52,278 nucleotides of DNA from Acidobacteriota bacterium (GTDB lineage: Bacteria; Acidobacteriota; Terriglobia; Acidiferrales; UBA7541): contig QHYH01000118.1 in assembly GCA_003223215.1 (NCBI GenBank), positions 44,673 to 96,950 on the forward strand, in the 5' to 3' direction. The notes under the pieces were generated by a model. That model had not been told where the DNA came from and searched no databases. It was given only the letters and a program-made list of their open reading frames with translations. A program made the translations under genes and the position numbers. Shown here in pieces: positions 23,890 to 44,760 of this stretch. The stretch's first letter is position 1. Each line of letters opens with the position of its first letter.

Positions 23890-25005
23890 ATGAGAATCCT
23901 TCAAATTGGGAATTACCCGCCACCCGCCTGCGGCTGGGCCATGCAGACGAAGCTTTTGGTGGAAGAACTTCGCCGGCGTGGGCATGTTTGTCAGGTCTTG
24001 AATATCAATGAGAGTCGCAAAAAGAAATCCAGCGAGTATGTCGACGTACAAAATGGCTTCGATTACGTTTACAAGCTGGTTCGGTTTGCCGGAAAAGGTT
24101 ACCAGTTTCAGGTACATGTCAATGGGCAGTCCAAAACGGGCTACGTCCTGGCTCTGTTGGCGGCCTTGGTTGGCAGGTCGAGCGGCCGCGCGGTAGCGCT
24201 GAGCTGGCAAGGTGGCCTCGAGCAAAAGTATTTTCCGAGATCGCAGGGCCACTTCCTGCGTGAGTTCTACAGACTACTTTTTCGGCTGTGCGGAAAGATC
24301 GCTTGCAACGACCTGCGAATTAAACAGGCGATTGAAGGTTATGGCATGGAACCCGACCGCGTTGCCGCGATTCCGGCGTTTTCAAAGCAAAACCTGGATT
24401 TTCGGCGCGTACCGCTGGATCCGGAGATTGCGGCCTTTCTCGGTTCCCACCGTCCGGTTTTCTTTTGCTACGTCTCGTTTCGCCCTGAATACCGGCTCGC
24501 GATGCTTCGTGTAGCGATGAAGAAATTTCGTCAACGGTACGAGCAAGCAGGCTACATTTGGCTGGGATTTCCTTCCAAAGAATTACCTGCGGCCCGGCAA
24601 TTTGTGGCGTCATGGCCACCGAGCGAACGAGCAAGCCTGCTGTTGCTGGGAAATTTGAGCCACGACACATTTATGACGCTGCTCGAAACATGTTCTGCAT
24701 GCATACGAACACCCGCGTGCGATGGCGTTGCCGCCTCGGTCCTGGAATCGTTGTCGCTTGGTGTCCCGGTCGTTGCCAGCGAAAATCGCTATCGGCCGCC
24801 CGGGGTGACGACCTACCGCGAAAACGATGCCGACGACCTGTGTAAGAAACTTGCGTTTGTTACCGGGCATTACGCGCAAGTGAAGGAACAAACACAACTC
24901 GCGTGTGGCGCGGAAGACAATATCACGCGGACTGCGGATTGGTTGTTGGAAGAGTCTCCGCAGCGCGCAAAGGAACCAGCGCGGGACTTTGCCAGTGCCG
25001 ACTAA
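23890..25005 (+). CDS. GT4-like glycosyltransferase
   Basis: 371 residues, ATG start. The N-terminus MRILQIGNYPPPACGWAMQ and the first domain (VEELRRRGHVCQVLNI) are typical of GT-B enzymes. The C-terminal domain carries LLLGNLSHDTFMTLLETC and ACDGVAASVLESLSLGVPVVAS, matching the donor-binding region; the first glutamate of the usual E-x7-E is replaced by aspartate (CDGVAASVLE). It probably adds one sugar to the repeat unit. The following lyase gene begins 11 bp inside its 3' end. Confidence 0.85.
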   Translation: MRILQIGNYPPPACGWAMQTKLLVEELRRRGHVCQVLNINESRKKKSSEYVDVQNGFDYVYKLVRFAGKGYQFQVHVNGQSKTGYVLALLAALVGRSSGRAVALSWQGGLEQKYFPRSQGHFLREFYRLLFRLCGKIACNDLRIKQAIEGYGMEPDRVAAIPAFSKQNLDFRRVPLDPEIAAFLGSHRPVFFCYVSFRPEYRLAMLRVAMKKFRQRYEQAGYIWLGFPSKELPAARQFVASWPPSERASLLLLGNLSHDTFMTLLETCSACIRTPACDGVAASVLESLSLGVPVVASENRYRPPGVTTYRENDADDLCKKLAFVTGHYAQVKEQTQLACGAEDNITRTADWLLEESPQRAKEPARDFASAD

Positions 25006-27460: not shown

Positions 27461-27469
27461 AAACAGACC

Positions 27470-29470: not shown

Positions 29471-29484
29471 GAACGAACCAAAAC

Positions 29485-30744: not shown

Positions 30745-32126
30745 CCGAGGCAGCGCTCTATCCTGCCGCCAACAGCGATTCCCTCCTGGAGTCACGGCCG
30801 GGTCTATCGGAAGCAGGAAGTCGCCGTACGAGTCTAAGTTTCTTCTTTGTCATGCTGTTTACTGTCGCTATTTATGCCCGGCCAGAAGACATTGTTCCGG
30901 CGCTCGGGCGATTTCACCTGACTTTTGTTTTGGGTCTATGCGCGGGATTTGCCTATCTCGGACCCTTTCTCTTAGACAACGCCTCGTTCGTGTGGACGAA
31001 GGAACTGCAAATCGTACTGCTGCTCACCGGCTGTTTTGTCGCAGGTATTCCGTTCGCCTATTGGAGAGGGGGAAGCTTTCAAGTCCTGACACAAGTGTGG
31101 CTCAAGACGCTCATTATTTTCTTTCTGCTCACGCAGACCCTCGTGACGCTCGAGCGAATCCACAAGATTCTTTGGGCCATTATCTTCAGCGAGCTTGTTG
31201 TTTGCGCCTACTCGGTCGTCCAATCGTCTCACGTCGTCTGGGTGGACCAACGTTTGTCGGGGGTTAGTCTGGGAATCTTGGGGTGGAATTTCCTCGGTAT
31301 CGCGGCTGCCCTGACCATTCCTTATATCGCCGCGCTCTACATTAGCCAACCGGGGTTTCTCAAAACGGGCTTGCTCGTTTCTGCCGTTCTATTCCTGCTG
31401 TGGATGCTGGTGCTGACCGCATCGCGCAGTGGCGTGCTGAACGTGCTCTTCTCGATCGCCTTGACCTGGCTGGTCGTCCTGCGCGGTACCTTTCGCGGAA
31501 AATTCATCGGCATAGGCATTGTGCTCATTGCCATAGCGGCTATCAGCATGGCGCCTGGAGTTTTTTGGGAGAGGATGTCCACCGTGTGGTCCGGCTCCGG
31601 CAGCTCACAGAACCTGGCGGCCGCTTCTGCCATAGAGTCCGAGGAAGAGCGCTTGGGCGCCTTGCACCGGGCGATTCATTACACGCTCCAGCATCCTGTT
31701 TTTGGCCTGGGCCTCGGAAACTTTGAGATCGCCAGCGGCACCGAGCTGGGCCGGCCTGAGGATTGGCTCGGCGCTCACAACACATTTGCGCAGATCTCTT
31801 CGGAGGCTGGAGTTCCGGCTTTAATGCTATTCATCTCCCTTCTCTGGACGGCCATCCGCCGGATGAAAACGTTGAGTAAAACAATCGCTGACGGCCCCGA
31901 AGGTTTCGACCTCAAGCTCATGGCGCGCGCGACCTGGGTCAGTTTATTGTCGTTCGTTTTTGGCGCCTTTTTCGCCCATATCGGCTACGAATACTTCCTC
32001 TACTACCCCGTCGCAATTGCCGTCGGCCTGCAATACCTCAGCCGGACAACGCCGGCGCCTTCCGGCTCGATGGCCCATTCCTTGATTCCGGAACTGCAAG
32101 CCTCAGCGACGGATGGGAGCTCATGA
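30741..32126 (+). CDS. O-antigen ligase / EPS polymerase (Wzy_C family membrane protein)
   Basis: 461 residues with roughly ten membrane helices (for example SLSFFFVMLFTVAIYA, ELQIVLLLTGCFVAGIPFAYW, LLVSAVLFLLWMLVL, FIGIGIVLIAIAAISMA). The large periplasmic loop near residues 290-360 holds the Wzy_C signature: HPVFGLGLGNFE and GAHNTFAQISSEAGVPAL. Such proteins polymerise undecaprenyl-linked repeat units at the outer face of the inner membrane or ligate chains to an acceptor. With the Wzx-type flippase at 43216 and the GumC-like regulator it makes a Wzx/Wzy pathway. Both ends overlap neighbours by 4 bp (ATGA), implying coupled translation. Confidence 0.9.
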   Translation: MTEAALYPAANSDSLLESRPGLSEAGSRRTSLSFFFVMLFTVAIYARPEDIVPALGRFHLTFVLGLCAGFAYLGPFLLDNASFVWTKELQIVLLLTGCFVAGIPFAYWRGGSFQVLTQVWLKTLIIFFLLTQTLVTLERIHKILWAIIFSELVVCAYSVVQSSHVVWVDQRLSGVSLGILGWNFLGIAAALTIPYIAALYISQPGFLKTGLLVSAVLFLLWMLVLTASRSGVLNVLFSIALTWLVVLRGTFRGKFIGIGIVLIAIAAISMAPGVFWERMSTVWSGSGSSQNLAAASAIESEEERLGALHRAIHYTLQHPVFGLGLGNFEIASGTELGRPEDWLGAHNTFAQISSEAGVPALMLFISLLWTAIRRMKTLSKTIADGPEGFDLKLMARATWVSLLSFVFGAFFAHIGYEYFLYYPVAIAVGLQYLSRTTPAPSGSMAHSLIPELQASATDGSS

Positions 32127-33436
32127 ACATGGGTATGCTCAACTTAGCGGTGACCTTTTGGATTTGCCTGGTTTTGGTTGCTTACAACTACGTGGGCTAC
32201 CCGCTGGTTATTTTTCTTCTTTCGGTGCTATCCCAGGCCAAGTCCGATCTGCTGTTTCTGTTTCATCGAGGCGGACGACGCTGCACCCCGCCAGCCCAAT
32301 ACTTCCCGAAAGTCGCTGTTCTGATGTCCGTTCATAATGAGGAAGCCGTAATTCAAGCGAAGGTGAAGAATACTTTCGAAGCGGCCTATCCGCCGGATCG
32401 TCTGGCGTTTCTTATCGGACTTGATGCGCCTTCAGATTCTACCGCGGATCTCGTGGGTCAAATGGATTTTGACCGCCTTCGCGTGACGCACTTCAAGGAC
32501 CGTCGAGGGAAGTTGGCGGTGTTGACCTCTCTCGCAGAGCAAACCTCGGCTGAGATCTTGGTGATTACAGACGCGAACACAAGACTCGAGCCCAACTGCA
32601 TCGGCAATCTGGTTCGTCACTTTGCGGACCCGAAAGTCGGCGCCGTCAGTGGAGAGGAGAGTCGCATGCCCTCTCCGGGGTCCGACCCGGCCGCCGAGGC
32701 CCTCTATTGGCGTTACGAATCCGCGCTGAAATTGCTGGAAAATCGGCTGGACTGCACGCTTGCAGGCAACGGCAGTGTGTTGGCGGTCCGCCGCTCCCTT
32801 TTCCGGCCGCAAAAGCAATCCATTGTTGAAGACCTGCAGATTCCACTCGAGATTCGCCTGAGCGGCTACCGCGTCATTTATGACCCTGAAGCGGTCGCTT
32901 TTGAAGAAATTGCTCCGACGCTCTCCGCTCAGTTTGCTCGAAGAGTCCGGATAGGTGCCGGGGACTACCAGACGCTTTTTGCAAATCTACCGTGTCTGAA
33001 CCCGCTAAGGGGGATGCTGGCGTTTTGTTTTTTTTCGCATAAGGTCCTTCGCTGGCTCGCACCGTTGCTGCTTCTTGTTGCATTTGGTTCGAGCGCGCTG
33101 CTTGCAGGACACCGCAATTTTGCGATCTTGCTTGCCGCCCAAGGCGCATTTTACTTGAGTGCCTGCCTCGGGTATTTGCTCAAGAAACGAGGAAAGCCTG
33201 CGCGTCTTTTCTCCTTGCCCTTGCACTTCTGTTCCATGAATCTAGCCATGTTGTTGGGATTGCTCCGCTATGTGACGGGACAACAGAGGCTCACCTGGAG
33301 TTCCACACCGCGTCAGGCATGGCACGAGGCGCCTAGCAGAGGCAAAGAGAGCGGGACCACGAGTTCTGTGACGGGCGTTCCCCGGCAAGCTGATAAGACT
33401 GATCCCCCAAGCGAGCAGGCTTTTCAAAGTACTTGA
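32123..33436 (+). CDS. Membrane-bound GT2 glycosyltransferase (poly-GlcNAc/hyaluronan synthase-like)
   Basis: 437 residues, ATG overlapping the polymerase stop. One membrane helix at the N-terminus (about 6-36), a GT-A domain, then three or four C-terminal helices. Motifs: KVAVLMSVHNEE, GLDAPSDST, the metal-binding VITDANTRL (D-x-N variant of D-x-D), GAVSGEE, AGNGSVLAVRR, VEDLQIPLEIRLSGYRV and RRVRIGAGDYQ in the place where processive synthases have QxxRW. The W is absent, so it may add single sugars rather than polymerise. The C-terminal 40 residues look disordered. Confidence 0.87.
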   Translation: MNMGMLNLAVTFWICLVLVAYNYVGYPLVIFLLSVLSQAKSDLLFLFHRGGRRCTPPAQYFPKVAVLMSVHNEEAVIQAKVKNTFEAAYPPDRLAFLIGLDAPSDSTADLVGQMDFDRLRVTHFKDRRGKLAVLTSLAEQTSAEILVITDANTRLEPNCIGNLVRHFADPKVGAVSGEESRMPSPGSDPAAEALYWRYESALKLLENRLDCTLAGNGSVLAVRRSLFRPQKQSIVEDLQIPLEIRLSGYRVIYDPEAVAFEEIAPTLSAQFARRVRIGAGDYQTLFANLPCLNPLRGMLAFCFFSHKVLRWLAPLLLLVAFGSSALLAGHRNFAILLAAQGAFYLSACLGYLLKKRGKPARLFSLPLHFCSMNLAMLLGLLRYVTGQQRLTWSSTPRQAWHEAPSRGKESGTTSSVTGVPRQADKTDPPSEQAFQST

Positions 33437-33558
33437 ATAAAAGAATTTGACGCTCCTGGTAAGGCCGGGCCATGCCACGTAGCCCGACCCTCAAGTTGCC
33501 GCCGTTTGAAAAACAAGCGTTCGATGTGCGTTAACGGAAGACGAAGTAAACGTCAGCA

Positions 33559-34944
33559 ATGAGACGTTTTGTAAATTATTACCATTTTTATCTAAGAGTT
33601 GTGACTTACGGTCTCCCTTTCCTATCCTTTGGGGCTGCCAGGTACCTCCTGCGCTCAGTGGGACACCCGGACACTGGGCTCGACCGGTACAGTTATTTCA
33701 ATCTCTTGCTGTTCATGACCGTGATCTGGGCAATCGTTAGCGAATACTACCGGGTCACAAGCGTGCAGGAACTCTTTCGCGAACGCACCGGGATTCGCGC
33801 GGCCTTCTCCACCTGTGCCGCTGCTTATGCCGTGCTCCTTGGCGTGCTGTTTTTCTTCCATCTCCATCGGAACCTTTCCCGCATTTTCCTGGGCCTCAGC
33901 GGGATGGCCTTGCTTTTTGCAACTCTAACGATGCGCGCAGGATTCCGGATTCTCGTTCACAATCATTCCGGGCTCCGGAATCCCAGCCGCGTTTTTGTTG
34001 TTGGAGCAGACCAGTTCGCCCGCCGGGCGACACACCGATTAATTCGCGGCCCGCTGGCCTTTTGCCGGGTGATGGGTTACGTGAGCCTTTCCGGCCAGAT
34101 CATTGCCGTCGATGATGCGCCGGTATATTCGCTTCAACAAATCACCGAAAGGATGAGCCGCAACGACGTCGATGAAATCATCATCGCGCTTCCGCCCAAC
34201 CGATTCTCCGAAATACCGCAAATCATGAAAACCATGGAACGTTTTTGCCTGCCGGTGCGCGCGGTCCTTGACTTCGGCGACCATATGTTGATCCGCGAGA
34301 GACTCTTTCAGTTTGGACGTCTACAGATACTGGATTTAACGGCCACCCCGACAGAATCAGTTCGATATTCCCTGCTGAAGCGTGCCTTTGATCTTACTTT
34401 CTCGGCTCTCGCCCTCCTGCTTGCTTCGCCATTGATGGCGGTTATCGCAGTTCTCATCCGCCTTACTTCTCCCGGGCCAATCCTGTTCGTTCAGGATCGT
34501 GTCGGTCTGAACGGGAAGCTGTTTCGCATGTATAAGTTCCGGACCATGAGGGTGAGTGACTCTTCTGAGAGTGACTCGCGCTGGACGAGCCCAGGCGACC
34601 CTCGACGCACTCCGCTCGGAGTCTTCCTGCGCAGGACCAGCCTGGACGAATTGCCCCAGTTTTTCAATGTTTTGAAGGGTGATATGAGTGTTGTCGGGCC
34701 GAGGCCCGAGCGCCCGCGCTTTGTCGCAAAATTCCTCAACGAAGTGGCGAGGTACAACAGTCGTCATCGCCTGAAGGTGGGCATCACCGGTTGGGCCCAG
34801 GTCAACGGTTGGCGCGGCGACACCTCCATCCGGAAGCGCGTGGAGCACGATTTGTTCTACCTTCAAAACTGGAGCTTTGCTTTTGATGTGAGGATCATTT
34901 TCCTTACCATTTTTCCGAAATATCGCAACCGAAACGCCTACTAG
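33559..34944 (+). CDS. Initiating undecaprenyl-phosphate sugar phosphotransferase (WcaJ/WbaP-like)
   Basis: 461 residues, ATG 122 bp after the GT2 gene. About four N-terminal membrane helices, then a Rossmann-like CoA-binding-type domain (SRVFVVGADQFARRA) and the C-terminal catalytic domain with its re-entrant helix (LKRAFDLTFSALALLLASPLM). Diagnostic motifs: SPGPILFVQDRVGLNGKLF, MYKFRTMR, RTSLDELPQFFNVLKGDMSVVGPRPE and VGITGWAQVNGWRGDT. The enzyme transfers sugar-1-phosphate to undecaprenyl phosphate, the first committed step of repeat-unit synthesis. Which sugar cannot be told from sequence. Confidence 0.94.
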   Translation: MRRFVNYYHFYLRVVTYGLPFLSFGAARYLLRSVGHPDTGLDRYSYFNLLLFMTVIWAIVSEYYRVTSVQELFRERTGIRAAFSTCAAAYAVLLGVLFFFHLHRNLSRIFLGLSGMALLFATLTMRAGFRILVHNHSGLRNPSRVFVVGADQFARRATHRLIRGPLAFCRVMGYVSLSGQIIAVDDAPVYSLQQITERMSRNDVDEIIIALPPNRFSEIPQIMKTMERFCLPVRAVLDFGDHMLIRERLFQFGRLQILDLTATPTESVRYSLLKRAFDLTFSALALLLASPLMAVIAVLIRLTSPGPILFVQDRVGLNGKLFRMYKFRTMRVSDSSESDSRWTSPGDPRRTPLGVFLRRTSLDELPQFFNVLKGDMSVVGPRPERPRFVAKFLNEVARYNSRHRLKVGITGWAQVNGWRGDTSIRKRVEHDLFYLQNWSFAFDVRIIFLTIFPKYRNRNAY

Positions 34945-35017
34945 GATTTGCGATCCTCCATTTACTTTCATTTCCTCGTTTATCGATTCTTGTTCTGGCC
35001 GAGAGTGCACGGTCTAT

Positions 35018-36793
35018 ATGAGGACAGCTAGCGTTTTGATTCTCTCTAATGTGCGACCCTTGCGTGCGTGGACGTTCGCTAACCGACTCCTGCGCGAAGT
35101 TCCTGGTGCTGAAATTTGCGGCATCGTGCAGCGGCCTATGCGCTCCATTCCTCGGCTCCAGCGAATGCTCGCGATGGCTCACCTACGAGGAGCCTACGCC
35201 ACTCACGGCTGGTGGTCGCAAGCTCAGCTCCTGCTTCTGTCCATGATGGACAAAATAGTGGACTGGTTTTGCTGGTTCGTGCACGGGTGTCCCAGGCTTC
35301 TAAGCAGTTCCGGCTTCACCGCCGACAGGCTGACCCAGGAATGCGCAAAGGCAGGATGGCCATTTGCCGTCGTCGCAGAAGACTCGGAGTCGAGCGTCGC
35401 AACTTTGGCGTGTCCCGCAAAGGTCGATCTGGTTATTCTGCTCGGACAGTTTTCGTCAATCCCTGAATTTTCTGCCCGTGCATCGATCGGGTGCATTTGG
35501 GCCTCGGATCACAAGCCAAGCGCGGGTCAGGTAGAACCGGGCCGAGATGCCCTGATTTCTATCGAGCATCTGGCACAAGGCACACAAACCCCATTCAAGA
35601 TTGCTTCTTTGATTCTTCCCTGGCAGCCGTTCGACGGTCCCTTGGGGTTTAGGTTGAAAGCTGATCTGATCGCAGATGATTTGCTGCTCGAGACAGCCGA
35701 AAACCTGTTGCGCGGCGATGCCGCAACCGCGTCAACGCTCGTATCGCAATGGGTGAATCGAGTTCTAACACCGTTGCTTTCACAGCTGGATGGCATGGGC
35801 CAGCGCGCTTGCCGGGACGGCCGCGGAGGAAACCGTTGTCGCCCTGCCTGGAAGCTCTGCCTCGACACGCTGCTGCTTCTCTCTCCGAGGATCCTGGTGA
35901 AGAATTGGCATCGCCGGATGTCCGCGCAATACCCACTGCTCGTCCTTGCCCATCACCTGGTAGCCGATCGCCCCCACAGAATGGGCGTATCGACGGAGAC
36001 GCTTTGGCGGCAGGTTCTCTTTTTGAGGAAACATTACCGCATTGTCGGCCTTTCGGAAGGTGTCGGGCTCTTGCGCTCTGGTCAAATTTCAGCTCCAACG
36101 GTCGTGCTCACCTTTGACGACGGTTATGCGGACAATTTCCTGAATCTTCGGGCGGTGACGAATGAAATAGGAATTTCGCCTACCTTATTTGTTACGACGG
36201 ATCCGGTTGAAGCTCACCGCGAATTTGCCCACGACCTAGCAACCGGCACCACTGGATTCTTTCCTTTGACCTGGGACCAAATCCAGTACTGGAACACGCG
36301 TGGAGCTGAGTTCGGCAGTCATACTCGTACGCATTTCGATTGCGGCTCCGTTCATTTGGAGAATTTGCAGTCGGAAATTCTTGGTTCCCGAAACGACCTG
36401 GAGGCTCGCCTAAAGAGAACGGTGGAGTTTTTCGCGTTCCCGTATGGAAAGCACAAGAATATGTCTTCTGAAGCGAAGCGCTTGGCGGCTTCCGCCTACA
36501 CTCATTATGTCTCTTTCCTGGGAGGGGAGTCACTCGCCAAAGCAGGCCAATCGCAAACCCATTTGTTTCGAAAGAAATTCTATAGAAGTCAATGGGAACT
36601 CGAATTGGAATTGCAGTCGGTCTTCGACCTTGTCGACGACATAAAAGCGTGGTTCCACCGTCGGGCTTCCCATTCTTCAAAACCCCCAGACCGTCCCCTT
36701 GTCGCCTCACCGCGGCCCTCGTCCATTCATACGGTCGGGCCCCCTCCCGCGTCGACTGCAATCTATTCTCGCGCCAAAAATCCCTGTAATTGA
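35018..36793 (+). CDS. Formyltransferase-like domain fused to CE4 polysaccharide deacetylase
   Basis: 591 residues. The C-terminal part (about 300-540) is a complete NodB-type deacetylase: TFDDGYADN (D367, D368), GSHTRTHFD (zinc ligands H435 and H439), FFAFPYGKH, and an N-terminal LVLAHHLVADRP strand. It would deacetylate N-acetyl or O-acetyl sugars. The N-terminal 230 residues resemble the formyl-transferase fold (SVLILSNVRPL, VDLVILLGQFSSIPEF, then IGCIWASDHKPSAG), but the catalytic N-x-H of that family is replaced by a sequence without it, so this half is probably inactive or repurposed. No signal peptide, so action is cytoplasmic or at the membrane face. The last 45 residues are Pro/Ser-rich. 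Confidence 0.8.
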   Translation: MRTASVLILSNVRPLRAWTFANRLLREVPGAEICGIVQRPMRSIPRLQRMLAMAHLRGAYATHGWWSQAQLLLLSMMDKIVDWFCWFVHGCPRLLSSSGFTADRLTQECAKAGWPFAVVAEDSESSVATLACPAKVDLVILLGQFSSIPEFSARASIGCIWASDHKPSAGQVEPGRDALISIEHLAQGTQTPFKIASLILPWQPFDGPLGFRLKADLIADDLLLETAENLLRGDAATASTLVSQWVNRVLTPLLSQLDGMGQRACRDGRGGNRCRPAWKLCLDTLLLLSPRILVKNWHRRMSAQYPLLVLAHHLVADRPHRMGVSTETLWRQVLFLRKHYRIVGLSEGVGLLRSGQISAPTVVLTFDDGYADNFLNLRAVTNEIGISPTLFVTTDPVEAHREFAHDLATGTTGFFPLTWDQIQYWNTRGAEFGSHTRTHFDCGSVHLENLQSEILGSRNDLEARLKRTVEFFAFPYGKHKNMSSEAKRLAASAYTHYVSFLGGESLAKAGQSQTHLFRKKFYRSQWELELELQSVFDLVDDIKAWFHRRASHSSKPPDRPLVASPRPSSIHTVGPPPASTAIYSRAKNPCN

Positions 36794-36844
36794 AAGGTTC
36801 CGAAACGCATATTCGACGAAAAGCGGACAATGGGAGGCGAGCAT

Positions 36845-37951
36845 ATGCTTTCGACCAAGACAAGTGTGAAATCCGAGCTTCCGTTTGACACGCGTAAACC
36901 TGTAGCGCGCGCGAACGGCGCCTTACGCGGCCATGCTGGGGAGCCACTTCAGCTCTTCTCCACCTGCCCGCAATCTTTTGGCTTCGATAAGGAGTCGTAT
37001 GCGCGCCAGGTCAGGAAGGTGGCCCGTTGGAGCGAGCGGTGCGGCTGCCAGGGAATTCTGGTTTACACCGACAACTCGCTCGTGGACCCTTGGCTGGTTT
37101 CGGAGATTATTGTCGAGAGCACAAAAGGGTTAAGTCCCTTGGTAGCGATCCAGCCGGTTTACATGCACCCTTACTCGGTGGCAAAGATGGTGGCTTCCTT
37201 TGGATTCCTCTACCATCGTCGGCTCTATTTGAACATGGTTGCCGGAGGCTTCAAAAATGATCTGGCAGCCTTGCACGACGCAACTCCTCACGACAAGCGT
37301 TATGCGCGCCTGATCGAATACACAACAATCATCAATCAACTCCTGTCTAGCTCAGCTCCCGTCACCTTTCATGGCGAGTTCTACGGCATCGACCAACTGC
37401 GGATGATGCCTTCCCTTCCCGGGGAGCTTCTTCCCGAGATCTTTGTTTCTGGATCGTCTGATGCTGGGATGGATGCGGCGAAAAAGCTCGGCGCGACCGC
37501 AGTGAAGTATCCGCGCCCGACAACCGAATGCGCCGCCGAACTCGCAAATGATGGACTCAAGTCAGGTATTCGCGTGGGAATCATCGCGCGAGAGACCGAA
37601 GAGGAAGCCTGGGAGATCGCCGAGCAGCGATTCCCGGAAGATCGCAAAGGTGAGCTGACTCACCAACTCGCAATGAGGGTATCCGATTCCCTATGGCACA
37701 AACAGCTCTGCGATACCGCCAATAAGACTCGCGCCATGCGCACCACGTACTGGCTCAGGCCCTTTGAGCAATACAAGACCTTTTGCCCTTACTTGGTGGG
37801 AGGCTACGAACCGGTTTCGAACGAACTCTCCCGGTACATCTCTTTGGGTTACCGGACCTTTATCTTAGACATTCCACCCGACGAAGAAGAACTGAAGCAT
37901 GCGGCCGCAGTATTCGATCGAGCGGCTGAAAAAATCGGCCTTGCAGTTTGA
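36845..37951 (+). CDS. Luciferase-like (LLM) flavin-dependent monooxygenase
   Basis: 368 residues from ATG 36845, seven bases after GGGAGG; ATG 36830 lies before that site and is less likely. The TIM-barrel pattern of the bacterial luciferase / alkanesulfonate monooxygenase family is clear: RKVARWSERCGCQGILVYTDNS, HPYSVAKMVASFGFLYHRRLYLNMVAGG, TFHGEFYGI, PEIFVSGSSDAGMDAAKKLGA and RVGIIARETEEEAWEIAEQR. Such enzymes use reduced FMN and oxygen to oxidise a substrate, in some cases one bound to a carrier protein. The ligase and carrier genes directly downstream make a carrier-bound or sugar-bound acyl substrate plausible. It is not a usual member of EPS loci. Confidence 0.85.
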   Translation: MLSTKTSVKSELPFDTRKPVARANGALRGHAGEPLQLFSTCPQSFGFDKESYARQVRKVARWSERCGCQGILVYTDNSLVDPWLVSEIIVESTKGLSPLVAIQPVYMHPYSVAKMVASFGFLYHRRLYLNMVAGGFKNDLAALHDATPHDKRYARLIEYTTIINQLLSSSAPVTFHGEFYGIDQLRMMPSLPGELLPEIFVSGSSDAGMDAAKKLGATAVKYPRPTTECAAELANDGLKSGIRVGIIARETEEEAWEIAEQRFPEDRKGELTHQLAMRVSDSLWHKQLCDTANKTRAMRTTYWLRPFEQYKTFCPYLVGGYEPVSNELSRYISLGYRTFILDIPPDEEELKHAAAVFDRAAEKIGLAV

Positions 37952-38029
37952 ACCTGTGACGGGCAGCGCAAGCCGTGATTTGCCCCACCGTGCTTCCAAT
38001 GCATCTCCGCTTTGAGCCGAACGGCACTG

Positions 38030-39637
38030 ATGACCAAACAAAACTCTTCTCGAAGCCTGATCAGAGGATTTCTCGAATCCGCTGAACGCTTTCCTGACCG
38101 AACCGCTCTCGTCGTTGACGGCGAGTCCCTGACTTATTCAAGCCTGCGCCGGCTCGCCGGCAGGATTGCATCCGCAATCGCAGAAAATGGGCACACCCGG
38201 TCTCCGCTTGTCGCCGTTTGGGCGCACCGGAGTCAAACAGCTTACGCGGGTATCCTTGGGTCCCTTGGAGCGGGCAAAGGCTACGTGCCTCTGAACCCGA
38301 AGTTCCCCCTGGAACGCACCTGCCGCATGCTTGCTCTTGCCGGGTGCACCGTGCTTATCGTTGGCAGGGAGTGCCTTGGCCAGTTATCGGGCTTGCTTGG
38401 GAGTGCGGACTTTCCGCTCACGCTCATCTTGCCGGAAGTATTCGATCTGGGAGAGTTCTTGCCGAGCCGTCCCAATCATCGCTTCATAACTGCCGGGCAA
38501 TTACCAAGCGGCGAGAGTTTTTCTTCTGGTGAGGACTCCGCCTCTGCTTCGGCGTATCTTCTTTTTACCTCGGGAAGCACGGGGGTGCCCAAAGGCGTTC
38601 CGATCAATCAGGGGAATGTGCGGTCGTATGTGGACTACATCTGCCGCCGCTATGACGTGAATGAACATGACCGCTTCTCTCAGCAATTTGATCTCACCTT
38701 TGATCTAAGCGCCCATGACCTTTTTGTGTGTTGGGAACGCGGGGCCTGTCTGTACTGTGTCCCGGAGCATTCTCTGATGGCCCCCGCGAAGTTCATCCGC
38801 GATCACCAGGTGACGATGTGGTTTTCTGTGCCTTCGGTCGCCGGTTTGCTCGAGAAAATGCGGCTGCTCCCGCCCGGCTGTTTTCCTTCGCTGCGCTGCA
38901 GCCTGTTTTGTGGCGAACCTCTGCCGGCTGCTTACGCCGCGTCTTGGCAGGAGGCCGCTCCAAACTCGATTGTCGACAACCTCTACGGACCGACCGAAGC
39001 AACGATCGCCATCACACACTACCGGTGGAATTCGCAAAAATCGCCTGGCGAATGCTTGAACGGCATTGTTCCCATCGGCCAAATGTTTGAAGGGCAGCAA
39101 TTTCGCATAACCGATTCGCGGGGAGAGAGCGTTCCAATCGGAGAAGTTGGCGAGCTTTGCCTTTCCGGATCACAAGTCGCCGCTGGCTACTGGAACGATC
39201 CTGCGAAAACCCGGCAGCAGTTTGTGCGTCTCCCTGGCGCTCGGGAACGAATATGGTATCGCACCGGCGATTTGGTACAGCGGGATGAGGCCGGCAACCT
39301 TTGCTACCTGGGGCGAGTCGATCACCAAATTAAGATCCGGGGCTACCGCGTGGAGTTACAGGAGATTGAGGCGGTGCTGCGGCATGCTTGCGGCACGGAG
39401 CAAGTCGTTTCGGTTCCCTGGCCGGTCAACAGCGGGACGGCCGAAGGAGTGGTTGCGTTTGTCTCCGGTGTTAAGGGATTCGACCAAGCGCGCATTTTAG
39501 CAAACTGCGGTGATGTCTTGCCCGATTACATGGTTCCAAAGAAGATTTACCTGCTCGACGAATTGCCGTTGAATTCGAACCAGAAGATTGATCGCGGGGA
39601 GCTTCGAAAGCTGTTGCTTGAAGGAGCCCTCGCGTGA
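38030..39637 (+). CDS. DltA-like aminoacyl (D-alanine type) carrier-protein ligase
   Basis: 535 residues from ATG 38030. All adenylation core motifs are visible: A3 LLFTSGSTGVPKG (178-189), A4 FDLTFDLSAHDLF with D225 in the place that binds the amino group in amino-acid-activating enzymes, A5 NLYGPTEATIA, A7 YRTGDLV, A8 GRVDHQIKIRGYRVEL, and A10 NSNQKIDR with K519. FDLS..DLF, LFCGEPLP and YGPTEATIAIT follow DltA of Gram-positive bacteria. The enzyme should make an aminoacyl-AMP and load it on the carrier protein whose GTG overlaps this gene's stop. An acyl-CoA-ligase role, as in XrtA loci, is the alternative. The amino acid is not determined. Confidence 0.85.
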   Translation: MTKQNSSRSLIRGFLESAERFPDRTALVVDGESLTYSSLRRLAGRIASAIAENGHTRSPLVAVWAHRSQTAYAGILGSLGAGKGYVPLNPKFPLERTCRMLALAGCTVLIVGRECLGQLSGLLGSADFPLTLILPEVFDLGEFLPSRPNHRFITAGQLPSGESFSSGEDSASASAYLLFTSGSTGVPKGVPINQGNVRSYVDYICRRYDVNEHDRFSQQFDLTFDLSAHDLFVCWERGACLYCVPEHSLMAPAKFIRDHQVTMWFSVPSVAGLLEKMRLLPPGCFPSLRCSLFCGEPLPAAYAASWQEAAPNSIVDNLYGPTEATIAITHYRWNSQKSPGECLNGIVPIGQMFEGQQFRITDSRGESVPIGEVGELCLSGSQVAAGYWNDPAKTRQQFVRLPGARERIWYRTGDLVQRDEAGNLCYLGRVDHQIKIRGYRVELQEIEAVLRHACGTEQVVSVPWPVNSGTAEGVVAFVSGVKGFDQARILANCGDVLPDYMVPKKIYLLDELPLNSNQKIDRGELRKLLLEGALA

Positions 39638-39897
39638 ACGCCGTCGCGGAAAAAGAGCTCATCGACCTGGTGGTCGACTGGGTCAAACAGAACGGTCGCA
39701 ACGGCTCAAACCACACGGAAATCTCCGAGAGTACGAACTTGTTGGAGAGCGGGCTCCTGGACTCGTTTGCTTTTGTCGACCTCGTTTTGTTCATCGAGAA
39801 TTGCACTCGACAAAAGATCGATTTGACCGACGTGGCCCCGGAAGAGTTCACCGTGGTGAAGAGCCTGTGCCATCTGGCCTTCCAGAATGGCCACTAG
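39634..39897 (+). CDS. DltC-like acyl/aminoacyl carrier protein
   Basis: 87 residues, GTG overlapping the ligase stop (GTGA). An acidic four-helix carrier with the phosphopantetheine site S44 in ESGLLDSFAFVDLVLFIE; the GLLDSF motif and the following FIEN match DltC better than fatty-acid ACP (GADSLD). It is the presumed partner of the ligase. A phosphopantetheinyl transferase is not in the window, so the housekeeping one must activate it. Confidence 0.88.
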   Translation: MNAVAEKELIDLVVDWVKQNGRNGSNHTEISESTNLLESGLLDSFAFVDLVLFIENCTRQKIDLTDVAPEEFTVVKSLCHLAFQNGH

Positions 39898-39968
39898 GAT
39901 CAACCGTGGCAGCTCTTTGAGGCAGTCGAGAAACCATACCGGCGTCTAACCTAACCTTGCGAAAATTT

Positions 39969-41183
39969 ATGAACGACATGAGCGGTAGCGCGGCCGGCAC
40001 TTTGGCATCGGGTGGATCCGTTTCATCGGCGACAAATACTCACAAGAATGGAACCATGCCTCCCGGGGCCAATGGCCCGCACCCGGCACACCGCTTGACG
40101 AAGAGGATTCGGCCGTTTGTCCCCGAAGACATTTCACAGGTCGCGGAACTGCACAAGAAAGTTTTTCCAAACAGCCCCTTTTCCGATGCGGAGCTCCGAA
40201 GCTACTTCCAACTGCTTTTCTTCGAGAATCCGTGGCACGACGCCGATCTTCCTTCACTGGTTTACCAGGAAAACCGTGGAAAGATCCTTGGGTTCTATGG
40301 CGTGTTGCCTCGGCCGATGCGTATGCAAGGGCGCCCGATCCAGGCGGCCGTCTCCAGCCAGTTCATGGTGGATCCCTCCGTCAGGAATCGTCTGGCAGCC
40401 GTTGAGCTCCAGAACGCTTTCTTCGCTGGCCCGCAGGATTTGTCTCTCACCGACGGAGCGAACGAAGCGAGTCGCAGAGTCTGGGAAGGATTGGGAGGTC
40501 TGACGGCCTTTCCTTATAGCGTCCACTGGACACGCCTCCTGAGGCCCACCCGGTATCTGCTCGAGCGCTGCAAAGAGCATAGGCTTTTCGCTCCGTTGCA
40601 ACTGGCAATGCGACCGATGTCCGCTGCCGTCGACTTTCTGGCTGCTCACGAACGCCGAAGCCCGTTCTTCGAGACAGAGCAGCCTCGCGAGGAGGACTTC
40701 GCTTGGGAAACGCTCTTCGCGCATTTGCCAAGATTCACGGTCTCGAAGTCACTCTGTCCGGAATACGACGAGCGGTCCATGCACTGGCTTTTGGAACGGG
40801 CCGGCGAAAAGAGGTCTCACGGCAAATTGCGGAAGTCTTTAGTACGAAACGGCAACGGACAAATTGTCGGCTGGTATATGTATTACCTCAACCGAAAAGG
40901 CACCAGCCAGGTTTTGCAACTCGTGGCTACGAAAGACTCCCTGCGCCTCGTGCTGCGCCAGCTTTTCTTTCACGCGTGGAGGTTGGGATCGGCAGCGGTT
41001 TCCGGGCGCGTGGATCCCGAATTCGCCACCGATCTATCTCAGGAACACTGTCTGTTCGACTTTAATGGCCCTCGTTTGCTCGTGCACTCCAAGCGGGCGG
41101 ATCTGCGCGAAGCCATCGAGCGGGGCGACGCGTTTCTTACCCGTTTGGAAGGCGAATGGTGGATGCGCTTCGAGGGGGGCTAA
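39969..41183 (+). CDS. GNAT-type acyltransferase
   Basis: 404 residues from ATG 39969 (TTG 39957 also possible). Residues 1-50 are Gly/Ser/Thr-rich and probably disordered. A GNAT-like domain begins at RIRPFVPEDISQVAELHKKVF, with GKILGFYGVLPRPMRMQG and SSQFMVDPSVRN, and a second half contains GQIVGWYMYYLNRKG and LLRQLFFHAWRLG-like segments, so it may be a double GNAT fold. Its place right after the ligase and carrier genes suggests it moves the carrier-bound acyl or aminoacyl group onto a sugar. The family gives no acceptor information. Confidence 0.75.
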   Translation: MNDMSGSAAGTLASGGSVSSATNTHKNGTMPPGANGPHPAHRLTKRIRPFVPEDISQVAELHKKVFPNSPFSDAELRSYFQLLFFENPWHDADLPSLVYQENRGKILGFYGVLPRPMRMQGRPIQAAVSSQFMVDPSVRNRLAAVELQNAFFAGPQDLSLTDGANEASRRVWEGLGGLTAFPYSVHWTRLLRPTRYLLERCKEHRLFAPLQLAMRPMSAAVDFLAAHERRSPFFETEQPREEDFAWETLFAHLPRFTVSKSLCPEYDERSMHWLLERAGEKRSHGKLRKSLVRNGNGQIVGWYMYYLNRKGTSQVLQLVATKDSLRLVLRQLFFHAWRLGSAAVSGRVDPEFATDLSQEHCLFDFNGPRLLVHSKRADLREAIERGDAFLTRLEGEWWMRFEGG

Positions 41184-41302
41184 CCCTCCCGGTTCGCTCG
41201 ACCAAAGACCAGAACTTTGCACAGGTTTCGCGTTTGTGACGGCGGAGGGATTAAAGACAGGGTATTGCAAATCCCAATCCTCCGAATAAGAGCATTGCCC
41301 GA

Positions 41303-43123
41303 ATGATCGTTCTCGGAATCAGCGGCTTCGAAAAATCCATTCCCTTTAAGAAGGCGCATTGGCCGAACCTCGATGACCGCGAATATCGCATCTCGCAGGG
41401 ACACGACTCCGCCGCGGCGTTGTTCATTGACGGTGAATTGATTGCGGCCGCTGCCGAGGAGCGGTTCAGTCGACAAAAACATACCGGCGACTTCCCCGTC
41501 AACACCATCTCTTATTGCCTTGCCGAAGGAGGTGTCACACTTGGCGATGTCGACGAGATCGTGCACTCTTTCGATTTCGCGCCGCATCGCGCTGTCTACA
41601 GTTTCGACCCAGTCACGGCCGCGCTCTACCGGGATGTCTATTCACGTGAAGCTGTTCTCGCCCAGGTCACTCGCTATTTGGACGGCTACCCTAGAGACCG
41701 TGTTGGCTATGTTGACCACCATTTGGCTCACGCAGCAAGCGCCTATTTTTGCTCCGGGTGGGACGACTGCTTGGTTGTGGTCGTCGACGGCATGGGCGAA
41801 GTGCAAAGCGCCTCGGTTTATCATGCCCATGATGGCAAACTCGAAAAACTCCGGGAAGTCTCCGCTCGAGACTCCATCGGCATTCTTTATTCCGTTGTCA
41901 CTTTGCATCTCGGATTCGACTTCAACGCCGATGAGTACAAAATCATGGGCCTTGCGCCTTACGGCAACCCAGCGCGCTTCCGGCCCTTTTTCGAGCAAAC
42001 TGTCGAATTACGCGAGGACGGAACCATCCGTATTCCTCTGCTTCGCTTGAACCGGACGCGCGACGAATGCGAAAACTATCTTGCAACGCGGAGATACCTC
42101 GCCGAACATTTGGTCAAGCCGCGAAATCCGAACGAGCAAATAACCGACGAACATCGCGATGTCGCCGCGGCGCTCCAGGAGCGCCTTGACCGCGCCATGC
42201 AGCACTTTTGCAAACATTTTGGAAAAAGTACCGGACTCGGTCGTCTTGCTGTTGCCGGCGGTGTAGCTCTCAATTGCACAGCAAATGGAAAGCTGTTGCG
42301 GTCGGGAACGTTTGACGAAGTCTTTGTGCAGCCTGCCGCAGGGGACGACGGCTCCGCCCTGGGAGCAGCCGCCTTCCGAGCAGCACAAAGCGGCCGCATC
42401 CGTAACGTTCGCATTCCCGTGCCGTTTTACGGACCGGCCTACTCCCTTTCGCAAATCGAAGAAGCCCTTAAAGAGTTTCACGATCGCATTGAGGTCCGAT
42501 CTTTTCAAAATCTGTTGGAGACGTGCACTCAGGCGGCACAGCTGATTGCGGATGGCCGTGTGGTTGGCTGGTATCGCGGCCGCATGGAATTCGGGCCGCG
42601 AGCCCTGGGCCATCGCAGCATCTTGGCCGATCCGGGACATGCGGAAATGCGCGATCGCATCAATGCGATGGTGAAGATGCGTGAAGCCTTCCGTCCGTTT
42701 GCGCCCGCTGTCACGTTGCGCGAAGTAAGTAAATGGTTTGACGTTTCAGCGGGCGCCGAATTCCCCTACATGATTACAACCGTAGATGTCCGTCGGGAGC
42801 ATCGCAACCGCCTTCCAGCGGTTACTCATGTCGACGGCTCCGCGCGAGTTCAAACCGTCTCTGCTTCCGACAACCGGGAGTTCCATGCACTCTTAGAAGC
42901 CGTTGGAAAAACTACCGGGCGCGAAATGGTCTTGAACACCAGTTTCAACGTCAAAGGCCAGCCCATCGTCAACACCCCGCGGGAAGCCATCGAAACGTTC
43001 CTAAATACGGGCATCGAATTCTTGTTCCTGGAGGACACCCTGGTAGCCCGTCGCGATGGCGGGCACGCCACCGTTTTACGCGGATCTGCCGGGTGCACGG
43101 TAAGTGCTGGAGCCAGTAAATGA
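41303..43123 (+). CDS. O-carbamoyltransferase (NodU/TobZ/CmcH family)
   Basis: 606 residues, ATG start. N-terminal Kae1-like domain: GISGFEKS, QGHDSAAALFIDGELIAAAAEERF, and HHLAHAASAYF with H139 and H143 spaced as the metal-binding histidines of TobZ; VVVVDGMGE and AVAGGVALNC complete it. The C-terminal YrdC-related part contains GRMEFGPRALGHRSILADP, MREAFRPFAPAV and EMVLNTSFNVKGQPIV. The enzyme makes carbamoyl-AMP from carbamoyl phosphate and transfers the carbamoyl group to a hydroxyl, in NodU to a sugar. In this locus the acceptor is most likely an EPS sugar. It follows the GNAT gene after a 119-bp gap. Confidence 0.93.
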   Translation: MIVLGISGFEKSIPFKKAHWPNLDDREYRISQGHDSAAALFIDGELIAAAAEERFSRQKHTGDFPVNTISYCLAEGGVTLGDVDEIVHSFDFAPHRAVYSFDPVTAALYRDVYSREAVLAQVTRYLDGYPRDRVGYVDHHLAHAASAYFCSGWDDCLVVVVDGMGEVQSASVYHAHDGKLEKLREVSARDSIGILYSVVTLHLGFDFNADEYKIMGLAPYGNPARFRPFFEQTVELREDGTIRIPLLRLNRTRDECENYLATRRYLAEHLVKPRNPNEQITDEHRDVAAALQERLDRAMQHFCKHFGKSTGLGRLAVAGGVALNCTANGKLLRSGTFDEVFVQPAAGDDGSALGAAAFRAAQSGRIRNVRIPVPFYGPAYSLSQIEEALKEFHDRIEVRSFQNLLETCTQAAQLIADGRVVGWYRGRMEFGPRALGHRSILADPGHAEMRDRINAMVKMREAFRPFAPAVTLREVSKWFDVSAGAEFPYMITTVDVRREHRNRLPAVTHVDGSARVQTVSASDNREFHALLEAVGKTTGREMVLNTSFNVKGQPIVNTPREAIETFLNTGIEFLFLEDTLVARRDGGHATVLRGSAGCTVSAGASK

Positions 43124-43215
43124 AGCCTCCTCGCAAGGAAGCCTCAAGCCCGCTCCAGCGCGGTTCCATGGACGATCCGAACTATCTCAGGACACACCGA
43201 GTTCTCTGAGCATTC

Positions 43216-44760
43216 ATGCGCGTCTCGCTCATCTTAAGGGCGGTGGCAACGAGTTGGGTGGCCGTCGTCGCCAATGCCTCGGTCGGCATCTTTCTTACCC
43301 CCTATGTCTTGCATCGCTTGGGTGACGAGGCCTTTGGTGTCTGGGTTCTTATCGTCAACCTGGTCGGCTACTACGGCATCTTGGATGCCGGCGTCCGCTC
43401 CGCCATCCTTCGCTATGTCTCCCGCCACAAGGAACTCAACGAGCAGAAAAAGGTCAACGAGGTGCTCGCCTCCGCATTCTATTACTACCTCGGTGCCTGC
43501 ATTTTGGTCATCCTGGCCACGCATCTCTCCGTCGATCCCCTGTCCCGCTTCTTCTCCATTCACAGCCAGGTGCTCGGCGAGTTCAAGTCCCTCTTCCTCC
43601 TCGCAGGCCTCGTTCAGGGCGTCAATCTTCCCTTGATGGTCTTCGCGAGCTCCCTGGAGGCAGCCGGTCGTTTCGACCAGGTCTATCTCACCACCGTCGT
43701 CTGTCTTGCGCTTCGCGTGGTCGGAATCATTTATGTTCTGCATGCGGGCGGAGGCTTGTTCGCCGTGGGCGCCACCACGATTCTTTCCCAATTGCTTGCC
43801 TACTGCGTCCAGGTGCCACTCGCTCTCCGCGCTCATCGTGGCTTCACTCTTCACCCGAAATGGGTTCGCGCCGCGGTTTTGCTGAACATGTTTCGCTACG
43901 GCTCCATCAGTGTGGGCGTGGGAATCGCCGAGAAAATGCGCACCTACGTTTATCCCATCCTGATTGCCTGGATTCTTTCCCCTGTAGCCATAACCGTTTT
44001 TGCGCTACCGATGAAGATTCTCTCCTTCCCGGGAGAGGGGATTGGCACCATGACGGAGATCATGAACCCCCTTTCGAGCGAGCTGGAAGCCCGCAACAAC
44101 TTTGCTAAGCTGCGTGAACTCATTCAGATGAGCGTTCAAAGCGCCTTCCTGCTGCTTGCTCCATTTGCCGCTTTTCTCTTTGTCTTTGGCGGCGAATTAC
44201 TCACGCTTTGGGTAGGCCCTCGGTACGCCATTGCCTACCGCCTCCTGGTTTTTCTCACTTTGGGTGTCGGCGTTGCCGCTACCCAGTGCTGCGTTCAATC
44301 CATGCTCTTTGGTATCGACCGGCATAAGCAGCTCCTGTGGTATCGGCTTGGGGAAGGAATTTCCATTACCGTGTTCGGGGCCGCGGCCTTGGAGGTCATG
44401 GGACTCCAAGGTTTGGCCATCGTCATGGCCGCAACCTTGCTCTTAACCAGCTTGGTTCTTGTTCCTCGCCACTTGTGCAAGATCCTGGACCTGCCGCTGC
44501 GGCGCTATTTGCTCCAGGGGTGTGTGAAGCCTTGCCTCTTGGTTCTTCCGGCAGCCGCCACTTTCGTCGCTTCGCGCTTCATCTTCCAGGTGGACAGTTG
44601 GCCGGACCTCCTCGCCGCTGCCTTGGCTGGGGGTTTCGTTTACGGTCTGACGCTCTTCTTCGTGTGGCGCAATCATTCCAAACCTGTATTTCGCGCCTTG
44701 CGAGTGGATGTCCTGCAAGTCCTTGGGCGAAAAATCTGGCTCGCCTCGGAATCCAATTAG
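43216..44760 (+). CDS. Wzx-type oligosaccharide flippase
   Basis: 514 residues with about 14 predicted membrane helices and the arrangement of the polysaccharide transporter family: the N-terminal SLILRAVATSWVAVVANASVGIFL with LTPYVLHRLGDEAFGVWVLI, GILDAGVRSAILRYVS, and a second half with MTEIMNPLSSELEARNN. It would move the undecaprenyl-linked repeat unit across the inner membrane to the Wzy-type polymerase. It is the last gene of the long plus-strand run; palindromic repeats follow immediately. Confidence 0.92.
   Translation: MRVSLILRAVATSWVAVVANASVGIFLTPYVLHRLGDEAFGVWVLIVNLVGYYGILDAGVRSAILRYVSRHKELNEQKKVNEVLASAFYYYLGACILVILATHLSVDPLSRFFSIHSQVLGEFKSLFLLAGLVQGVNLPLMVFASSLEAAGRFDQVYLTTVVCLALRVVGIIYVLHAGGGLFAVGATTILSQLLAYCVQVPLALRAHRGFTLHPKWVRAAVLLNMFRYGSISVGVGIAEKMRTYVYPILIAWILSPVAITVFALPMKILSFPGEGIGTMTEIMNPLSSELEARNNFAKLRELIQMSVQSAFLLLAPFAAFLFVFGGELLTLWVGPRYAIAYRLLVFLTLGVGVAATQCCVQSMLFGIDRHKQLLWYRLGEGISITVFGAAALEVMGLQGLAIVMAATLLLTSLVLVPRHLCKILDLPLRRYLLQGCVKPCLLVLPAAATFVASRFIFQVDSWPDLLAAALAGGFVYGLTLFFVWRNHSKPVFRALRVDVLQVLGRKIWLASESN

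What the first reader, a model, noticed from the sequence alone, without database searches (positions are those of the whole stretch)
36845..41183. Dlt-like activation cassette with a luciferase-type oxidase in an EPS locus
Seen: DltA-like ligase and DltC-like carrier overlap by 4 bp, flanked by an LLM flavoprotein and a GNAT protein; DltB and DltD are absent. Known: DltA loads D-alanine on DltC, and LLM monooxygenases act in carrier-protein-based natural-product pathways. Inferred: an aminoacyl group is activated, perhaps oxidised, and transferred to an EPS sugar by the GNAT protein rather than by a membrane O-acyltransferase. This would be a new kind of exopolysaccharide decoration and is the best candidate in the window for an undescribed system.
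Basis: partly seen in the sequence, partly recalled or inferred. Interest (0 to 1): 0.74.

Follow-up and report, generated by a model that had tools for sequence, protein, structure and literature searches.

The report
Conserved aminoacyl activation-and-oxidation gene module
A small set of neighbouring genes, found together in very different soil and water bacteria, probably loads a tiny amino acid (glycine or D-alanine) onto a carrier protein, oxidises it and passes it on, in this genome perhaps to a slime polysaccharide; no description of the set was found.

Summary
At 36830-41183 four co-directional genes encode an SsuD-like flavin (LLM) monooxygenase, a stand-alone amino-acid adenylation enzyme, an 87-residue carrier (4-bp overlap) and a tandem-GNAT protein, followed by a carbamoyltransferase, inside a 33-kb EPS locus. 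It is a recurrent module: in 79 LLM loci (window included) the ligase follows in 72, ligase plus carrier in 67, over about ten phyla. The adenylation code is nearly fixed (66 of 67 complete codes), matches B. cereus DltA at 7 of 10 positions, and has the Leu/Cys pair that brackets glycine in AlmE and D-alanine in DltA (PMC11253843, passages): glycine or D-alanine is expected. Carbamoyl-, formyl- and RimJ-type acetyltransferases alternate beside the core; carbamoyl and formyl share none of the 49 loci that have either (weaker when kin are collapsed). It is not a Dlt system: DltA and DltC cut-offs are missed and the genome has no DltD. EPS decoration is plausible here, not general: Bradyrhizobium and Actinomycetospora loci lack homologs of the window's EPS genes. 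Substrate, LLM reaction and acceptor are inferred. New variant of a known kind.

The parts
36830..37951 (+). LLM: SsuD/MsuD-like flavin monooxygenase (373 aa; residues 1-33 low confidence in the model)
   Evidence: Bac_luciferase 1.2e-26; SsuD equivalog 114.8 bits, cut-off 518.2; alignment A2 of 45 of the 79 LLMs, mean column identity 53%; model pLDDT 87.3, nearest PDB MsuD, TM 0.73
38012..39637 (+). Stand-alone amino-acid adenylation enzyme (aminoacyl:carrier ligase); start 38030 chosen by my gene caller
   Evidence: TIGR01733 343 bits over cut-off; code DLHSLCLIAK; DltA equivalog cut-off not met
39634..39897 (+). Carrier protein, 87 aa, serine of the DS motif in ESGLLDSF; overlaps the ligase by 4 bp
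   Evidence: D43 and S44 invariant in the 33 carriers aligned, of 68 counted; no Pfam hit of its own at 0.001; family member L065 hits PP-binding 1.9e-11; weak AmcB/DltC hits
39957..41183 (+). Tandem-GNAT protein, probable acyltransferase (start uncertain, 40056 possible)
   Evidence: Model pLDDT 91.1; best structural matches N-myristoyltransferases (Z 20.8, rmsd 5.3, 317 aligned) and a B. anthracis acetyltransferase 3n7z (Z 20.0, rmsd 3.5, 284 aligned)
41303..43123 (+). Carbamoyltransferase (NodU/TobZ family); the variable 'capping' gene of the module in this locus
   Evidence: Carbam_trans_N/C 3e-55 and 5e-69; nearest PDB GdmN 2.9e-118, novobiocin carbamoyltransferase, TobZ; a carbamoyltransferase in 28 of 79 loci
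35018..36793 (+). Polysaccharide deacetylase-domain protein just upstream of the LLM (EPS locus; not part of the conserved core)
   Evidence: Polysacc_deac_1 1.2e-17; directly upstream of the LLM also in L023, L024, L072 and L010-L012, not in the other loci
11231..44760 (+). Surrounding EPS locus: export, chain-length, glycosyltransferase, UDP-sugar dehydrogenase, Wzy, WcaJ and Wzx-like genes
   Evidence: Poly_export, Wzz, Glycos_transf, UDPG_MGDP_dh, Wzy_C; WcaJ 423 bits over cut-off; Polysacc_synt_3

Best explanation
This is a carrier-protein module that prepares a modified small aminoacyl group. (1) The ligase adenylates glycine or D-alanine and loads it on the carrier protein (inferred from code and family). 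(2) The LLM, fed with reduced flavin by a reductase encoded elsewhere, oxygenates the carrier-bound aminoacyl group; +16 at the alpha carbon or at the amine is most likely (inferred). (3) A capping enzyme finishes the group: carbamoyltransferase here, formyltransferase or RimJ-type acetyltransferase in other genomes (co-occurrence shown, chemistry inferred). (4) The tandem-GNAT enzyme transfers the acyl group from the thioester to an amine; in this EPS locus the acceptor is probably an amino sugar of the repeat unit, perhaps one freed by the neighbouring deacetylase (inferred). Shown: gene families, predicted folds, co-conservation, near-fixed adenylation code, alternation of capping genes.
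For: LLM with ligase 72 of 79 loci, with ligase and carrier 67 of 79 (loci were picked by LLM similarity); LLM, ligase, carrier and tandem GNAT 38 of 79, all five with the carbamoyltransferase 15 of 79. The ligase family goes with the LLM: of 28 ligase loci from 25 genomes of the phylum, 6 of the 8 scoring over 600 bits to the family profile have the LLM in the short stretch fetched (5 of 7 without the window itself), and 0 of the 20 scoring less. Code D-L-x-S-[LIM]-C-[LIVM]-[IV]-A-K in 66 of 67 complete codes; B. cereus DltA reads DLMSLCTVAK (my reading); Leu and Cys bracket the alpha carbon of glycine in AlmE and of D-alanine in DltA (PMC11253843, passages). Flavin-reductase cluster in 7 of 79 loci, Pfam-tested for one. 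Precedent: MupA, a luciferase-type monooxygenase, hydroxylated only ACP-bound substrate, and no reductase was found in its cluster (PMC10952193, passages); [quoted passage not shown] Four LLM relatives of 39-48% identity sit in adenylation/carrier-type gene clusters. Homologs of two or more EPS genes: 20 of 50 loci of 15 kb or more against 1 of 15 control stretches of 14 kb or more.
Against: No biochemistry exists. MupA did not act on a beta-hydroxy substrate; a beta-keto group activates its alpha carbon, and a plain aminoacyl thioester lacks one. The module has no homologs of the window's EPS genes nearby in 8 of 8 Bradyrhizobium, 6 of 6 analysed Actinomycetospora and several Gemmatimonadota loci. 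A tandem-GNAT relative was recognised in only 41 of 79 loci, so transfer may use other enzymes. The carbamoyltransferase's nearest solved relatives are natural-product carbamoyltransferases such as TobZ, the tested formyltransferase's nearest is ArnA; both could act on sugars and not on the acyl group. Of the 20 EPS-positive loci, L023, L024 and L072 are near relatives of the window. Two strong ligase homologs (L115, L118) had no LLM in the stretch seen.
Confidence: 0.4

Rival explanations
1. The module makes a small diffusible metabolite (a capped, oxidised glycine or alanine derivative joined to an amine by the tandem GNAT); its place in EPS loci is genomic convenience.
For: The five-gene set (carbamoyltransferase, LLM, ligase, carrier, GNAT) occurs in 8 of 8 Bradyrhizobium and 3 of 6 analysed Actinomycetospora loci, none of which has a homolog of the window's EPS genes in the stretch held; four LLM relatives lie in halogenase-, carrier- or PPTase-containing clusters; the LLM tree does not follow phyla, which suggests transfer as a unit.
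Against: Recurrent EPS neighbourhood in several phyla (20 of 50 long loci against 1 of 15 controls). Whether an exporter recurs beside the module was not tested.
Confidence: 0.3
2. Plain Alm/Dlt-type aminoacylation: unmodified glycine or D-alanine is loaded and transferred by the GNAT; the LLM acts on a sugar or another substrate.
For: Code close to DltA and compatible with AlmE; GNAT fold like that of N-myristoyltransferase, an amine acyltransferase.
Against: Of the four proteins aligned the LLM is the best conserved (mean column identity LLM 53%, ligase 47%, GNAT 40%, carrier 28%; partly because loci were picked by LLM), and the ligase follows it in 72 of 79 loci; an oxidation tied to the ligase is more natural.
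Confidence: 0.15
3. An aminoacyl-sugar pathway in which the carbamoyl-, formyl- and acetyl-transferases modify the sugar, not the acyl group.
For: Nearest solved relative of the formyltransferase tested is ArnA, a sugar N-formyltransferase; carbamoyltransferases of this family, such as TobZ, act on hydroxyls.
Against: Weak: none of the seven neighbours of the Bradyrhizobium locus L053 scanned with Pfam looks like an amino-sugar gene; other loci were not scanned for them.
Confidence: 0.1
4. Fatty-acyl or hydroxy-acyl activation (lipid-like decoration).
For: AMP-binding superfamily membership.
Against: TIGR01733 over cut-off; amine-binding Asp in 67 of 67 complete codes.
Confidence: 0.03

Closest known systems
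AlmEFG glycylation of lipid A (Vibrio cholerae)
   Same: Stand-alone adenylation enzyme plus small carrier plus separate transferase decorating an envelope glycan (PMC12930378, passages); Leu/Cys bracket round the substrate alpha carbon (PMC11253843, passages)
   Different: Here an LLM and a capping enzyme are added; the transferase is a tandem GNAT. AlmF and AlmG sequences were not compared
Dlt D-alanylation (DltA/DltC)
   Same: Ligase and carrier as adjacent genes; family pocket code 7 of 10 identical to B. cereus DltA
   Different: Equivalog cut-offs of DltA and DltC missed; single MBOAT on another contig, no DltD in the genome; LLM present
Butirosin AHBA side-chain pathway (gene roles other than BtrO and BtrK recalled)
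   Different: Adenylation enzyme of NRPS type, tandem GNAT, and carbamoyl/formyl/acetyl transferases here. Btr sequences were not compared, and BtrK-type decarboxylases were not searched for
MupA/OocM trans-acting alpha-hydroxylases
   Same: Luciferase-type FMNH2 monooxygenase acting on ACP thioesters with a reductase from elsewhere (PMC10952193, passages)
   Different: Polyketide beta-keto substrates; this LLM is nearest to SsuD/MsuD among solved structures by sequence and fold
IdnL7 and VinM stand-alone small-amino-acid ligases
   Same: 6akd (IdnL7, PMC11253843) and 8k4r (VinM, recalled) are among the best full-length PDB matches of the ligase
   Different: IdnL7 uses Cys217 and Ala285 for L-alanine and refuses D-alanine (PMC11253843, passages); here Leu and Cys stand at what I take for these positions

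Membership tests
Dlt system | DltA over equivalog cut-off | tested here: not met
   272.6 bits against 559.85
Dlt system | DltC over equivalog cut-off | tested here: not met
   19.9 bits against 52.35
Dlt system | DltB and DltD present with DltA/C | tested here: not met
   No DltD match in the genome; single MBOAT match on another contig
Dlt system | D-alanine as substrate | not testable with these tools
   Code compatible but glycine equally so
Amino-acid adenylation (A) domain | TIGR01733 over cut-off and Asp/Lys anchor residues | tested here: met
   343 bits against 317.4; D and K in the window's code
Carrier protein | Conserved serine in DS motif | tested here: met
   D43 S44 invariant in the 33 carriers aligned, of 68 counted
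Carrier protein | PP-binding profile hit of the window protein itself | tested here: not met
   No Pfam family at 0.001; a family member hits it at 1.9e-11
Alkanesulfonate monooxygenase SsuD | Equivalog cut-off | tested here: not met
   114.8 against 518.2 bits
Luciferase-like flavin monooxygenase (LLM) | Bac_luciferase profile over cut-off and matching fold | tested here: met
   94.3 bits against 27.9; MsuD TM 0.73
Tandem-GNAT protein | Whole-chain match to two-GNAT structures | tested here: met
   Z 20.8 over 317 residues, rmsd 5.3, to N-myristoyltransferase 1iyl; Z 20.0, rmsd 3.5 to 3n7z
N-myristoyltransferase | NMT sequence profiles | tested here: not met
   No NMT Pfam hit for the window protein; 1 of 31 members hits NMT_C at 0.0075
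Butirosin-type pathway | BtrO/BtrJ/BtrH homologs | not tested
   Sequences not held

The most novel reading that the evidence does not exclude
The LLM N-hydroxylates carrier-bound glycine (or D-alanine), and the alternating formyl-, acetyl- and carbamoyl-transferases cap that hydroxylamine, giving hydroxamate or N-hydroxyurea groups (hadacidin-like, recalled) that the tandem GNAT mounts on polysaccharides or amines: a metal-binding or signalling decoration found in about ten phyla.
Probability: 0.12. Interest if true: 0.8.

Novelty: new variant of a known kind. Interest (0 to 1): 0.6.

Why it matters
An enzyme set with one nearly fixed substrate code occurs in about ten phyla, among them named Bradyrhizobium, Conexibacter and Actinomycetospora strains, and no description of it turned up in four searches of the held library. 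If it works as proposed, it joins nonribosomal-peptide chemistry (adenylation, carrier-bound oxidation) to glycan decoration, extends the Alm/Dlt idea to oxidised, capped aminoacyl groups, and can be tested directly with a few proteins that look soluble.

Tried and rejected
Membership of Dlt was tested and rejected. Fatty-acid activation was considered and set aside. SsuD function (desulfonation) was considered: equivalog cut-off missed, and the MsuD stretch RGGSGTALVG (an active-site loop, recalled) reads YKTFCPYLVG in the window, with most of that stretch invariant or nearly so in A2. Gene cluster c49 was first taken for another GNAT; profile comparison of 4 of its 5 members gave no support (probability 0.7%), and it is left out of the GNAT counts. 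Cluster c19 (Bradyrhizobium) and cluster c104 are supported as GNAT relatives (94.6% over 337 columns; 86.9% over 121 columns).

The exclusion of carbamoyl- and formyl-transferase is strong per locus (0 of 49 loci with either; Fisher one-sided 1.5e-5) but takes no account of kinship. Collapsed to LLM clusters at 65, 70 and 75% identity it gives p 0.043, 0.19 and 0.037; at 70%, 2 of 9 carbamoyl clusters also hold formyl loci. Formyl and RimJ share no locus (p 0.0025; collapsed 0.22, 0.007, 0.012). Carbamoyl and RimJ share 3 loci. Sixteen of 79 loci show none of the three, many of them on short contigs. On a quick LLM tree the labels need at least 15 changes, but much of the backbone is weak and starred branches force only 2 to 3 changes per type.

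Rows dropped or missing: L089 and L092 (my gene caller gave no LLM gene, although six-frame ORFs show LLM and ligase there). Ligase not within two genes downstream: L034 and L090 (LLM at a contig end), L037, L076 and L085 (ligase elsewhere in the locus), L081 and L094 (none seen). The carrier count accepts either strand and up to five genes downstream. Of 72 ligase codes five were incomplete and one complete code differed (L041, DVFSLALIVK). Alignments used parts of what I had: 31 of 32 GNATs, 45 of 79 LLMs, 40 of 72 ligases, 33 of 68 carriers. The EPS control is small (15 of 20 fetched stretches reached 14 kb; acidobacterial first contigs), used the window's own EPS proteins as queries and six-frame ORFs in place of called genes. 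An attempt to read the AlmE pocket from a PDB alignment failed: the alignments printed were all of gramicidin synthase, and the Vibrio plasmid ligase fetched for it did not look like AlmE.

Paper searches for an LLM-adenylation-carrier-carbamoyltransferase module listed none that I recognised as such; most subscription papers are not held. Of seven papers I saw passages only (PMC4176424, PMC8972799, PMC2922099, PMC11253843, PMC12930378, PMC10952193, PMC8739492); all others in listings only.
Full report
What is in the sequence. One search lists the four genes of the finding on the + strand: LLM 36830-37951, ligase 38012-39637 (38030 is the start my gene caller chose), carrier 39634-39897, GNAT 39957-41183. 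They are followed by a carbamoyltransferase (41303-43123) and a Wzx-like flippase (43216-44760) and preceded by a polysaccharide deacetylase-domain protein (35018-36793). Family searches name the LLM, ligase, carbamoyltransferase, flippase and deacetylase above Pfam cut-off; the carrier and the GNAT protein score only weakly on their own and rest on relatives, motif and fold. The whole lies in an EPS locus from 11231 to 44760 with export, chain-length, glycosyltransferase, UDP-sugar dehydrogenase, Wzy and WcaJ genes. The window lies in an 8.8-Mb assembly; the nearest LLM relatives with named records are from Acidobacteria group 2.

Is it a real module? A scan of a collection of 84,980 species genomes with the LLM found 130 relatives, of which the best 80 loci were kept. 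I called genes on these and the window. An LLM gene was recovered in 79 of 81. The ligase lies within two genes downstream in 72 of 79, a carrier within five genes in 68, and both in 67. In the window's family 13 of 89 genomes, its own included, have the LLM, and in all 13 a ligase homolog lies beside it. In reverse, 28 ligase loci from 25 of 396 genomes of the phylum split sharply: 6 of the 8 that score over 600 bits to the family profile have the LLM within the short stretch fetched (the window is one of the 6), and 0 of the 20 that score less. The records named cover Acidobacteriota, Verrucomicrobiota, Gemmatimonadota, Nitrospirota, Pseudomonadota, Rokuibacteriota, Planctomycetota, Actinomycetota, Balneolota and the Terrabacteria group ANGP1; many are metagenome bins, but named Bradyrhizobium, Conexibacter and Actinomycetospora strains are among them. 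The LLM tree mixes phyla.

What the ligase activates. The ten code positions were read from motif-anchored columns. Of 72 ligases, 67 gave complete codes, and 66 of these read D-L-x-S-[LIM]-C-[LIVM]-[IV]-A-K; the window reads DLHSLCLIAK. B. cereus DltA reads DLMSLCTVAK (my reading): 7 of 10 equal to the commonest family code DLFSLCLIAK. In DltA the Asp binds the amine and the Cys is one major determinant against L-alanine (PMC4176424, passages). [quoted passage not shown] At what I take for these two positions the family has Ala, as DltA, and Leu, as AlmE, so the pocket lies between the two. Glycine or D-alanine is therefore the prediction, and I do not choose firmly between them.

What the LLM does. 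Among solved structures it is nearest to SsuD/MsuD by sequence and by fold, and it is well conserved (45 sequences, 53% mean column identity). In 7 of 79 loci a gene of a flavin-reductase cluster stands nearby (Flavin_Reduct 6.7e-27 for the one member tested); the window's genome has one Flavin_Reduct match, on another contig. Four relatives of 39-48% identity lie on plasmids beside adenylation, carrier, PPTase, P450 or halogenase genes in varying combination. MupA shows that a luciferase-type enzyme can require an ACP-bound substrate and lack a reductase in its cluster, but it also needs a beta-keto substrate (PMC10952193, passages). That the LLM here acts on aminoacyl-carrier is inference; which atom it oxidises is open.

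Transfer and caps. The GNAT protein models with pLDDT 91.1; its best matches are N-myristoyltransferases (Z 20.8 over 317 residues, rmsd 5.3), with a Bacillus anthracis acetyltransferase (3n7z, Z 20.0 over 284 residues, rmsd 3.5) in the same tied group. N-myristoyltransferase acylates an amine (recalled). Relatives were recognised in 41 of 79 loci. Within 9 kb of the LLM stand a carbamoyltransferase (28 of 79), a formyltransferase-cluster protein (21) or a RimJ-type GNAT (17); carbamoyl and formyl never share a locus, formyl and RimJ never, carbamoyl and RimJ in 3, and 16 loci have none. The alternation is not proven independent of kinship, but close relatives can carry different caps. The simplest reading is that they finish the same product in different ways.

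Is EPS the target? Homologs of at least two of the window's EPS genes occur in 20 of 50 loci of 15 kb or more, against 1 of 15 control stretches; three of the 20 are near kin of the window. But none was found in the 8 Bradyrhizobium loci or the 6 analysed Actinomycetospora loci. In the one Bradyrhizobium locus whose neighbours I annotated in part (L053, seven proteins), they are a histidine kinase, a dicarboxylate symporter, a YkuD protein, two dehydrogenases and parts of a peptide-type ABC transporter. EPS decoration is thus likely for this locus and not a definition of the module.

Verdict. The module is a new variant of a known kind (stand-alone adenylation plus carrier plus transferase, as in Alm and Dlt, joined to a probably carrier-acting LLM as in butirosin and mupirocin). 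Substrate, reaction and acceptor need the tests listed.

Noticed in passing
L049, L050, L057, L074 (2-6 kb downstream of the LLM): In four loci the core is followed by members of a KAS III-like and a 3-hydroxyacyl-CoA dehydrogenase cluster (Pfam-tested in L074 only), in some with a further carrier or ligase, as if the aminoacyl group were extended.
   Followed up: partly
L104, L105, L106, L107: LLM relatives of 39-48% identity on Rhizobium, Tritonibacter, Gemmobacter and Streptomyces plasmids lie beside adenylation, carrier, PPTase, P450 or tryptophan-halogenase genes in varying combination.
   Followed up: partly
L109 7935-10790 and L159 4950-7685: Leisingera and Phaeobacter plasmids carry a single NRPS-annotated gene (adenylation part 40-42% identical to the window ligase) among polysaccharide and sulfotransferase genes: perhaps another EPS-linked aminoacylation.
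   Followed up: no
window 25043-27460, 17831-19780, 27470-29470, 22552-23841: The EPS locus holds a heparinase II/III-like protein, an asparagine synthase-like protein and a second one (from sequence similarity, no Pfam run) and an Acetyltransf_6 protein; relatives of the asparagine synthase and Acetyltransf_6 proteins recur in some other module loci.
   Followed up: partly
L060, L068, L069, L076, L099-L102: Proteins of gene cluster c13, which from their sequence I take for hexapeptide acyltransferases (no family search run), stand near the module, in L068, L069 and L099-L102 together with the formyltransferase-cluster protein.
   Followed up: no
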